From positions 1-56,439 of the forward strand of contig DYSZ01000004.1 in assembly GCA_020726265.1 (NCBI GenBank): a DNA stretch of 56,439 nucleotides. The letters are read 5' to 3'. Of this stretch, positions 52,462 through 53,732 are shown one piece after another (position 1 is the first letter of the stretch; each line of letters opens with the position of its first letter). The notes under the pieces were generated by a model. That model was given only the letters and a program-made list of their open reading frames with translations, searched no databases and was not told where the DNA came from. Made by a program: the position numbers and the translations under genes. The stretch is from Draconibacterium orientale. Lineage in GTDB: Bacteria > Bacteroidota > Bacteroidia > Bacteroidales > Prolixibacteraceae.

Positions 52462-52534
52462 GCGGGAATAGCTCAGTTGGTAGAGCACGACCTTGCCAAG
52501 GTCGGGGTCGCGAGTTCGAGTCTCGTTTCCCGCT
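52462..52534 (+). tRNA. tRNA-Gly (anticodon GCC), copy 2
   Basis: This is identical over 73 bases to copy 1 at 52237-52309. The cluster order is Gly-Leu-Gly. Immediately downstream a decayed copy of its 3' half begins. Confidence 0.95.
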
Positions 52535-52554
52535 CAACTATAAAATTATTAGTT

Positions 52555-52646
52555 GGGTCGCGAGCCATGACGTTCCCTGACACTAACGGTCAGGAAAGTC
52601 AGGATGCTGACTGAAATGTCAGCATTCGAGTCTCTTTTCCCACTCA
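52555..52646 (+). pseudogene. Split tRNA-Gly 3' half with 60-base insert
   Basis: GGGTCGCGAG at 52555-52564 and TTCGAGTCTCTTTTCCCACTCA at 52625-52646 match adjacent parts of the T-arm and acceptor of the tRNA-Gly genes, the second with two mismatches. Exactly at the join inside the T-arm sits a 60-base insert (52565-52624) with two hairpins: CCTGAC/GTCAGG at 52576-52594 and ATGCTGAC/GTCAGCAT at 52604-52625. The tRNA 5' half is missing. Partial copies of tRNA 3' ends are typical leftovers of integration at tRNA genes; the insert is of unknown origin. Confidence 0.7.
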
Positions 52647-52716
52647 ATCGAGTAGGTTGGGGGATTACTCTCCCGCCCTCTCATACCACCGTGCATGCTC
52701 TCGCACACGGCGGTTT
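52647..52716 (-). mobile_element. 3' end of a group II intron (domains V and VI)
   Basis: On the minus strand domain V is visible: ACCGCCGTG and CACGGTGGT pair (52714-52706 with 52693-52685), with an upper TGC/GCA stem, a GNRA-type GAGA loop and a two-base bulge. A short link (ATGAGA) leads into a domain VI stem (GGGCGGG/CCCCC) and the end CCTACTCGAT, where group II introns close. The intron ends at 52647 against the tRNA-Gly remnant. Everything upstream (domains I-IV and the reverse transcriptase) is gone, replaced by an IS element. The CGC-like triad in the domain V stem would suit class C introns; that is inference. Confidence 0.75.
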
Positions 52717-52736
52717 CCTTTAACCCACATTACAGC
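52717..52736 (+). repeat. Left terminal inverted repeat of the IS
   Basis: This 20-base end matches the complement of 53713-53732 except at one position (A instead of G). It abuts the domain V base of the intron. Confidence 0.8.
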
Positions 52737-52916
52737 AAAAGGTATCCCATTTAGTTAAAATTCAGGTATTATCCACTTTTTTCGGATTATTTTCATTACA
52801 CTGAATTTATAACCGACTGATAATCAACAGGAGGGTTTTTCTGGAATTGAAAATAGTCGATTGTGTGGACTTCCAAGCATTTGAATATTAGCTGATTAAG
52901 GTTGACCTTTGTGTTC

Positions 52917-53713
52917 ATGAATATCAAGACAATCAGGAAATATTGCATCGCTGAACAGACCACCCATACCTATTTTCGGTTGAGTGAGAGTTACCGCGAT
53001 GAGCATGGGTTTGTCCGGCAACGCATGGTCATGGGTCTTGGCAGATTGCTTGAACTTCCTGATTTTGATCATAAGATACTTTTTCTGGAACGGCTGAACG
53101 AACTGATAAAAGGGAAACCAACACTTTATAGCTGCAAAGAAGAAAAAGTTGAGCAACTGGCACAGTTTTACTATAGAGAGCTGAAACATAAAAAGAAGAT
53201 TGACAAGGCTTCTGGTGTCAGCGATGATATTGATACAGTCAAGCTCAATACCCTGAAGAACAGGAATATCCGTGAAGTTGGGGCTGAATCGCTTTGTTAC
53301 CAGGCACTTCGTCAACTTGGAATAGAACATTATCTGAAAGCAAGGGGTTGGGACGATGAGCAGGTGTGCCTGGCAGCAACCCATATCATCAGCCACACCT
53401 GCACCTAGGCTTGCTGGCCTATTGGCTTGTTTCAACCATCCGATACCAATTGAAACTACAGGGCAGCAACCTAGTCTGGAGCGAGATCGTCCGAATAATG
53501 AATACATAGAAAATGGTCACAACGACCGTCGAAAACACTAAGGAACAGATCATACAAATCAGACAATGCAGCGAACCAACTGATGGTGTCCAACTAATTT
53601 GCAGCAAGCTAAAATATCATGAAATACCGCTACCCCGAAAAAAATCCGTGTGGCACACTGGCGAAACTTCTAAAAATCAAATATCAGATTGTCAATTTGT
53701 TATGGATGGATAG
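52917..53713 (+). pseudogene. Transposase of IS1634 type, broken
   Basis: The N-terminal part (ATG at 52917, stop at 53408) reads HTYFRLSESYRDEHGFVRQR and GVSDDIDTVKLNTLKNRNIR, typical of IS1634-type transposases. After CLAATHIISH the frame ends. From 53402 another frame reads the transposase C-terminus (LGLLAYWLVSTIRYQLKLQG, later IIQIRQCSEP and PRKKSVWH), with a TAG at 53507-53509 inside it. The middle, including the DDE catalytic core, is missing. It is a clear pseudogene, and the ORF fragments should not be called genes. Confidence 0.82.
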
Positions 53714-53732
53714 CTGCAATGTGGGTTAAAGG
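53713..53732 (-). repeat. Right terminal inverted repeat of the IS
   Basis: This is the complement of 52717-52736 with one mismatch. It marks the outer edge of the deleted element. Confidence 0.8.

What the first reader, a model, noticed from the sequence alone, without database searches (positions are those of the whole stretch)
52462..53732. A wrecked integration hotspot: tRNA-Gly remnant, group II intron end and deleted IS stacked in 1.2 kb
Three layers are visible. A degenerate 3' half of tRNA-Gly follows the intact gene. The 3' end of a group II intron (domains V and VI) abuts that remnant exactly at 52647. An IS with inverted repeats at both ends begins at the base of domain V and replaces the rest of the intron. 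The right flank beyond the IS is unrelated, so an IS-linked deletion removed the intron body and whatever lay beyond it. The order of events can be read from the nesting.
Basis: partly seen in the sequence, partly recalled or inferred. Interest (0 to 1): 0.7.

Follow-up and report, generated by a model that had tools for sequence, protein, structure and literature searches.

The report
tRNA-gene parasite scar, twice overwritten
Behind an intact glycine tRNA gene of a Draconibacterium-like bacterium lies the scar of what looks like an undescribed tiny mobile nuclease cassette that duplicates tRNA gene ends, later overwritten by a self-splicing intron and a crippled insertion sequence.

Summary
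The stack is real. tRNA-Gly at 52462-52535 is intact. A second copy of its 3' half is split in the T-arm by a 60-nt double hairpin (52565-52624). The last 70 nt (domains V-VI) of a group II intron abut it on the minus strand, ending at 52647. A 1.0-kb IS1634-type element follows, with both inverted repeats, no target duplication and about 1.1 kb of its transposase gene missing.

In six sister Draconibacterium genomes the same split copy with the same double hairpin sits behind the same tRNA gene, four times beside a small GIY-YIG nuclease gene. Of 87 such ORFs in 63 fetched genus loci, 79 lie in arrays beside a same-strand tRNA gene. In the window's clade the tRNA end is duplicated around the ORF in 8 of 8 loci examined, with its terminator in 7. 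Nuclease clades are loyal to tRNA isotype (22 label changes, 58 when shuffled). So the window is probably the footprint of a tRNA-targeting GIY-YIG cassette whose nuclease gene is gone. Ten paper searches showed no description. Homing is inferred. The double hairpin also occurs as a stand-alone dispersed repeat in four other genomes.

The parts
52462..52535 (+). Intact tRNA-Gly(GCC); identical to the copy at 52237-52310
52536..52554 (.). 19-nt spacer, no terminator seen, where four sister genomes have a terminator and a GIY-YIG ORF
52555..52564 (+). Displaced tRNA-Gly copy, T-stem 5' piece (GGGTCGCGAG)
52565..52624 (+). Double-hairpin insert (REP-like palindromic module) in the T-arm
52625..52646 (+). 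Displaced tRNA-Gly copy, T-loop to 3' end
   Evidence: family D2
52647..52716 (-). Group II intron 3' end: domains V and VI; the intron ends at 52647
52717..53732 (+). Internally deleted IS1634-type element with both inverted repeats (element proper about 52719-53730)
52917..53408 (+). N-terminal part of the transposase ORF; the deletion junction lies near 53375-53426
53393..53710 (+). C-terminal transposase remnant

Best explanation
A four-step palimpsest. (i) A small GIY-YIG nuclease cassette entered at the T-arm of this tRNA-Gly gene and duplicated the tRNA 3' half with its terminator, so that the gene stayed intact and a displaced copy split by a double hairpin was left downstream. (ii) The nuclease gene and the first terminator were later lost, leaving 19 nt; the hairpin followed by TCTCTTTT may now end tRNA transcription. 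(iii) A terminator-targeting (class C-like) group II intron entered in the opposite direction, just behind the antisense T-run of the displaced copy's own terminator, which is why its 3' end abuts the tRNA copy. (iv) An IS1634-type element landed in or beside the intron just upstream of domain V, and a deletion removed the rest of the intron, its 5' exon and neighbouring DNA; the IS also lost its catalytic core. Shown: the anatomy, the kinship of the split copy with cassette-borne copies, the intron and IS identities, and the cassette structure in sister genomes. Inferred: that the GIY-YIG protein drives insertion by cutting tRNA genes (homing), that this genome once had the nuclease gene here, the order of loss, and the IS as cause of the deletion.
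For: The same double hairpin lies at the same T-arm place behind the same tRNA-Gly in six sister genomes, four with a GIY-YIG ORF in between. 79 of 87 GIY-YIG ORFs in 63 genus loci lie in arrays with a same-strand tRNA within 500 bp. The tRNA end is repeated around the ORF in 8 of 8 loci examined in the window's clade, with terminator in 7 of 8. Palindromes in 28 of 38 broken copies against 31 of 760 control segments. 22 isotype changes on the tree against 58.3 shuffled, 0 of 200 as low. dN/dS medians 0.11-0.20. Intron; 5' exon hairpin and T-run in 4 of 4 relatives read by eye. IS.
Against: No nuclease gene or trace of one at this locus, and no hit of this nuclease type in the own genome; two sister loci with the split copy (L046, L052) also lack the ORF, so the copy need not imply it. 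The double hairpin is a stand-alone repeat at 12 of 12 places in four other genomes. 31 of 69 upstream-tRNA units lack an exact 11-mer of the tRNA 3' end behind the ORF, and 8 of 87 ORFs have no tRNA found nearby. The terminator reading of the hairpin rests on a scan that found 2 sites against 1.8 expected. Why the intact tRNA gene is not cut again is unexplained. The intron's 5' exon is lost, so its target here cannot be read.
Confidence: 0.68

Rival explanations
1. The tRNA copy is the distal attachment repeat (attR) of an ordinary tyrosine-integrase island that was deleted; the hairpin is a later repeat insertion.
For: Repeats of a tRNA 3' end are a hallmark of such islands (recalled). The right flank is unrelated to the sister loci printed, as judged by eye.
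Against: Sister loci carry the same split copy with only a GIY-YIG ORF between the repeats; the 435-bp tandem unit of L035 holds one GIY-YIG ORF, the other ORFs listed there being reverse-strand readings. The terminator is duplicated too.
Confidence: 0.08
2. REP-like double hairpins simply insert into, or persist in, redundant tRNA copies made by tandem duplication; GIY-YIG genes are bystanders that like intergenic space.
For: The double hairpin is dispersed without tRNA or GIY-YIG in four genomes; other palindromes of the set occur 8 times in 400 kb of G002, none near a tRNA; two sister loci with the split copy have no GIY-YIG.
Against: 79 of 87 GIY-YIG ORFs beside a same-strand tRNA, with only three tRNAs in 400 kb of G002; isotype loyalty; the same hairpin with the same nuclease clade at Gly-GCC, Asp, Gly-CCC and, in another family, Met (in Gly-CCC the hairpin is imperfect).
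Confidence: 0.2
3. Nuclease and tRNA-like copy act at the RNA level: the GIY-YIG protein processes or cleaves tRNA, and the hairpin-split copy is a decoy, guide or antidote.
For: The copies are tRNA-like and structured (for the window and L050; the L036 copy is not unusually stable, z = -1.35); GIY-YIG under purifying selection.
Against: Transcription of the copies is unknown; hairpin types differ widely among clades; the tandem arrays look like an amplified mobile unit.
Confidence: 0.12
4. The IS1634 element arrived already as a deleted derivative, or the junction arose by recombination between two IS copies, so that the deletion was not caused by its transposition.
For: No target duplication; IS internally deleted; only one copy found in this assembly, which is in 346 contigs.
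Against: The junction lies at an IS end, as in IS-adjacent deletions (recalled).
Confidence: 0.35

Closest known systems
Mobile ORFs (mORFs) of fungal mitochondria (Glomus atp6, atp9, cox2, nad3; Allomyces atp6): PMC3630166, passages seen
   Same: An endonuclease ORF inserted at the end of a gene, with a duplicated gene end on its far side while the gene stays whole
   Different: Here bacterial, a GIY-YIG domain of about 80 residues, tRNA genes as hosts, duplication including the terminator, hairpins in the displaced copy, tandem arrays
Phage homing endonuclease SegB in a tRNA region: PMC13096335, start of abstract seen
   Same: Free-standing homing endonuclease linked to tRNA loci (link to GIY-YIG partly recalled)
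   Different: Phage-borne; no duplicated, hairpin-split tRNA end known to me
tRNA-integrating islands with tyrosine integrase (recalled)
   Same: Regenerates the tRNA 3' end and leaves a tRNA piece at the far side
   Different: No integrase in the sister cassettes; repeat includes the terminator; unit under 0.5 kb
REP/REPIN repeats (recalled)
   Same: Dispersed double hairpins, as in G336 and G637
   Different: Here inside displaced tRNA copies beside a GIY-YIG gene; no RAYT transposase was looked for
Group IIC introns (PMC7923331, passages seen)
   Same: In relatives the intron lies just behind a hairpin and T-run
   Different: Only domains V-VI remain here; maturase class not tested
IS1634 family (NCBIfam NF033559)
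   Same: Two full-length relatives pass the curated cut-off; shared inverted-repeat core
   Different: 1.0 kb against about 2.2 kb; DDE core missing; no target duplication

Membership tests
Group II intron | Domain V and VI fold | tested here: met
   RF00029 39.4 bits (curated cut-off 40, so marginal), whole model, E 6e-6; 94-96% identical over 70 nt to L092, L093 and L094, which also carry RF02001 upstream
Group II intron | Domains I-IV and maturase present | tested here: not met
   Absent beside the 3' end in the window; L094 and L097 have the maturase (405 and 407 bits)
Group IIC intron | Insertion behind a terminator hairpin and T-run | tested here: inconclusive
   4 of 4 relatives read by eye; the window's 5' exon is lost
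Group IIC intron | Maturase in class C | not tested
   No class-labelled maturase set was used
IS1634 family | IS1634-type DDE transposase | tested here: inconclusive
   Relatives L283 and L274 pass NF033559 (247.8 and 258.4 bits, cut-off 100); the window's N-terminal piece alone hits no NCBIfam family and its DDE core is missing
IS1634 family | Terminal inverted repeats at both ends | tested here: met
   20 nt, 95%; core shared with full-length L283
IS1634 family | Target-site duplication | tested here: not met
   No direct repeat at the two ends
Homing-endonuclease element with duplicated gene end (mORF-like) | Endonuclease gene present | tested here: not met
   Absent in the window and own genome for this type; present in sister loci, PF01541 53.8 bits in L050
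Homing-endonuclease element with duplicated gene end (mORF-like) | Duplicated gene end around the ORF | tested here: met
   In sister loci, 8 of 8 examined, 26-81 nt; in the window the displaced copy alone remains
Homing-endonuclease element with duplicated gene end (mORF-like) | Site-specific cutting of the empty gene | not testable with these tools
   Needs a biochemical assay
tRNA-integrating island (tyrosine integrase) | Integrase between the tRNA repeats | tested here: not met
   The L035 unit and the L050 and L036 inserts show only the GIY-YIG ORF on the sense strand between the repeats, at 50 aa or more
REP/REPIN-like repeat | Dispersed multicopy double hairpin | tested here: met
   6 places in G336 and 4 in G637, backward control 0; but one copy only in the own genome
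REP/REPIN-like repeat | Cognate RAYT transposase | not tested
   No search made

The most novel reading that the evidence does not exclude
The split tRNA-Gly is the footprint of an undescribed class of minimal bacterial mobile element: cassettes of about 0.35-0.5 kb made of one GIY-YIG nuclease, a duplicated tRNA 3' half with terminator (or a broken 5' part, at Pro, Arg and Leu-CAA) and a clade-specific hairpin. They target tRNA genes isotype by isotype, amplify in tandem, occur across Bacteroidota and some other phyla, and may also seed REP-like hairpins into genomes.
Probability: 0.45. Interest if true: 0.75.

Novelty: new variant of a known kind. Interest (0 to 1): 0.6.

Why it matters
If right, tRNA genes in Bacteroidota host a minimal homing-type parasite without integrase or transposase that spares its host gene by duplicating the gene's end and terminator. 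That would explain many stray tRNA fragments and small GIY-YIG genes beside bacterial tRNA genes. It gives a bacterial counterpart to the gene-tail-duplicating mobile ORFs of fungal mitochondria and a testable link between a nuclease and palindromic repeats. The window is useful because its layers order the events: split tRNA copy before intron, intron before IS.

Tried and rejected
Rejected: integrase island as source of the repeat (no integrase in the sister inserts; the terminator is duplicated too). Not found: complete intron or IS copies in the same genome. The 180-bp and 1016-bp searches returned only the window; the own genome has six RF02001 matches, but blast against the L094 intron gave only short pieces at 67-85%, and a second, more distant IS1634-like ORF piece on C261 (34%). 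Rejected: hairpin unique to GIY-YIG cassettes; it is dispersed alone in four other genomes, which weakens the tightest form of the cassette idea and is why I put the novel case at 0.45.

Selection and dropped rows: the 63 genus loci are the stronger part's list, down to about E 1e-7, plus three fetched earlier; weaker rows were not fetched. One search printed 18 of the 19 fetched sister loci; L053 (contig end) was not printed. In one search intervals under 150 nt were dropped. In one search two loci (L239, L247) were relabelled Val-TAC by hand because ARAGORN named their pseudo-copies Cys and Lys, and identical rows were merged (87 to 80). In one search, 26 of the 29 near-tRNA named loci were tested; L133 and L134 (same places as L050 and L036) and L152 (contig end) were left out. 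In one search the 12 loci hold two pairs from the same element (L274/L060, L059/L099).

Full report
WHAT IS THERE. The window is contig C60 of a 3.86-Mb genome in 346 contigs. Its genus is Draconibacterium by inference: contig lengths of genus members G002 and G007 equal those of D. sediminis JN14CK-3 and D. aestuarii Z1-6. Behind a mutS-like ORF (49524-52151, named from recall and sequence) stand tRNA-Gly, tRNA-Leu and a second tRNA-Gly at 52462-52535, identical to the first. Nineteen bases on, GGGTCGCGAG (52555-52564) and TTCGAGTCTCTTTTCCCACTCA (52625-52646) repeat its 3' half, split by 60 nt of hairpins. 52556-52647 folds at -32.9 kcal/mol against a shuffled mean of -22.5, 0 of 200 shuffles as stable.

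INTRON. On the minus strand 52647-52715 matches RF00029 over its whole length (39.4 bits, cut-off 40, E 6e-6). Of 294 other genomes of the order, 11 hold a match to the 70 nt; of 17 other places 14 span positions 1-70, at 83-96% identity. The base after the junction is T in 13 of the 15 places whose 3' end was aligned; two partial matches were set aside. L092, L093, L094 and L097 carry both RF02001 and RF00029; the L094 and L097 ORFs score as group II maturase (405 and 407 bits), and these two introns measure about 1.9 kb from the GTATG start read. The 5' exon ends in a hairpin and a T-run in 4 of 4 introns read by eye. PMC7923331 (passages seen) describes a terminator or other stem-loop upstream of the insertion site for class IIC. 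Sister displaced copies of the window's clade are followed by a terminator-like hairpin and T-run in 7 of 8 loci examined, so the intron probably sat behind the antisense T-run of such a terminator. This last step is inference, since the 5' exon is lost.

IS. The 20-nt inverted repeats share their core with the full-length relative L283, about 2.18 kb between ends. The two full-length transposases tested pass the IS1634 model. In 11 of the 12 loci compared (9 distinct elements; the twelfth, L277, gave no protein match) the transposase matches the window element as an N-terminal and a C-terminal piece meeting between IS nt 659 and 710, so some 350-375 codons, with most of the DDE domain, are missing. 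There is no direct duplication at the ends. In two of five relatives shown (L093, L094) the intron reads AAGG before domain V, and the window reads AAAGG across the IS end, so the breakpoint is uncertain by a few bases.

WHAT THE tRNA REMNANT IS. I fetched the same locus from 19 genus relatives and printed 18. Four (L036, L050, L046, L052) carry the window-type split copy; G319 and G328 add two behind the same tRNA cluster (L213, L214). Two have other disrupted tRNA copies (L035 with three tandem units, L051), two have short tRNA-like pieces (L039, L040), and ten show none that I recognised in the 400 nt printed; L053, at a contig end, was not printed. The motif GTCAGGATGCTGAC-N-GTCAGCAT was found in 31 of 292 loci then held, several covering the same place. 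In L036, L050, L213 and L214 a GIY-YIG ORF (PF01541, 53.8 bits for L050) lies between tRNA and split copy; in L036 it has an in-frame stop. In L046 and L052 there is no such ORF.

THE CASSETTE FAMILY. The nuclease query matched in 34 of 37 genus genomes searched; the own genome is one of the three without a match. In 63 fetched loci I counted 87 ORFs; 79 lie in arrays with a same-strand tRNA within 500 bp, whereas ARAGORN found only three tRNAs in 400 kb of G002. The eight others are in six loci: L217, L242 and L263 reach a contig end, L219 has only tRNA pieces, L259 and L272 show none. Usually the tRNA is upstream and a broken copy downstream; at Arg and Leu-CAA, and at most Pro loci, a broken 5' part is upstream and the intact tRNA downstream. 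Of 69 upstream-tRNA units, 38 keep an exact 11-mer of the tRNA 3' end behind the ORF and 31 do not; palindromes are in 28 of the 38 against 31 of 760 control segments. In the window's clade the tRNA end is repeated around the ORF in 8 of 8 loci examined (26-81 nt; in three of them the aligned repeat starts near the 3' end because a further hairpin interrupts the copy), with terminator in 7 of 8 (not L220); six cassette-free loci show the same tRNA end and terminator type. The tree of 80 rows needs 22 isotype changes, shuffles 58.3 on average, 0 of 200 as low; the alignment is short (86 columns) and near-copies inflate the clustering. dN/dS medians are 0.16, 0.11, 0.15 and 0.20 in four clades, on 5, 18, 2 and 5 pairs.

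BEYOND THE GENUS. Among 80 named loci from one scan, 29 have a tRNA within 500 bp, 28 of them on the same strand; two of these are the genus loci L133 and L134. By title they are mostly Bacteroidota, with some Patescibacteria and others; many of the 51 without a tRNA are Campylobacterota or Alphaproteobacteria. Of 26 tested, 18 show a repeated stretch of the tRNA, in one case (L148) a whole second gene. The window-type double hairpin with a related nuclease also occurs in G221, another family, beside a tRNA-Met, and in a Cyclobacteriaceae MAG where no tRNA was found in the 2.7 kb held.

EVIDENCE THAT CUTS THE OTHER WAY. The double hairpin is not confined to cassettes: 5 of 395 genomes hold it, the own one included, and at 12 of 12 places outside the own genome no tRNA or GIY-YIG was found in the 1.7-3.0 kb held. 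Other palindromes of the set occur 8 times in 400 kb of G002, none near a tRNA, while the double hairpin does not occur there. So the hairpin may be a REP-like repeat that cassettes carry or attract. The own genome's one small GIY-YIG gene has no tRNA within the 3.2 kb held. The terminator scan that marks the window's hairpin found 2 sites against 1.8 expected.

MECHANISM. Most likely the nuclease cuts near the T-arm of a given tRNA gene and repair copies the cassette in with a duplicated gene end: homing, about 50-60%. Loyalty to isotype, sparing of the host gene and purifying selection fit; why the intact gene beside the cassette is not cut again is open. An RNA-level role of nuclease and tRNA-like copy is not excluded. 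In the window the nuclease was probably lost, the intron came next, then the IS and the deletion.

LITERATURE. Ten searches of the open PMC library. Eight of them looked for GIY-YIG/tRNA elements, and their listings (capped at 10 to 20 papers, most papers in them on fungal mitochondria) showed none in bacteria. One search concerned group IIC introns and fungal mobile ORFs. Subscription papers and preprints are not held. The nearest analogue is PMC3630166 (passages).

VERDICT. Observation confirmed; interpretation right for intron and IS, incomplete for the tRNA remnant, which is the most interesting layer.

Noticed in passing
L226 (G009:C4:3730800-3736200): Six near-identical GIY-YIG units in tandem, 446 bp apart, behind one tRNA-His, each followed by a tRNA-His copy whose T-arm is replaced by a hairpin.
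   Followed up: partly
L054 about 5778-6235 (G000:C323): A second group II intron relic in the own genome, with RF02001 and RF00029 matches but no maturase ORF, close behind an ORF that looks like ribosomal protein bS16 (name recalled).
   Followed up: partly
L304, L307, L309, L311-L313 (G336); L301, L306, L308, L310 (G637): The double hairpin of the window remnant as a stand-alone dispersed repeat, 6 and 4 places per genome, often between short GGGCA/AGGCA-like repeats.
   Followed up: partly
L232, L244, L252 (tRNA-Val-TAC cassettes): In the broken copies the anticodon arm is replaced by a TCCCGA...TCGGGA palindrome whose loop sometimes still reads TTTACA, as in the intact tRNA.
   Followed up: no
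L158, L159, L175, L179, L212 (Patescibacteria by title): Small GIY-YIG genes just behind tRNA-Gln genes; three of the five (L158, L159, L212) also show a repeated tRNA 3' piece.
   Followed up: partly
window 30465-30503 and 20262-20291: Long perfect palindromes with arms of 18 and 15 nt.
   Followed up: no
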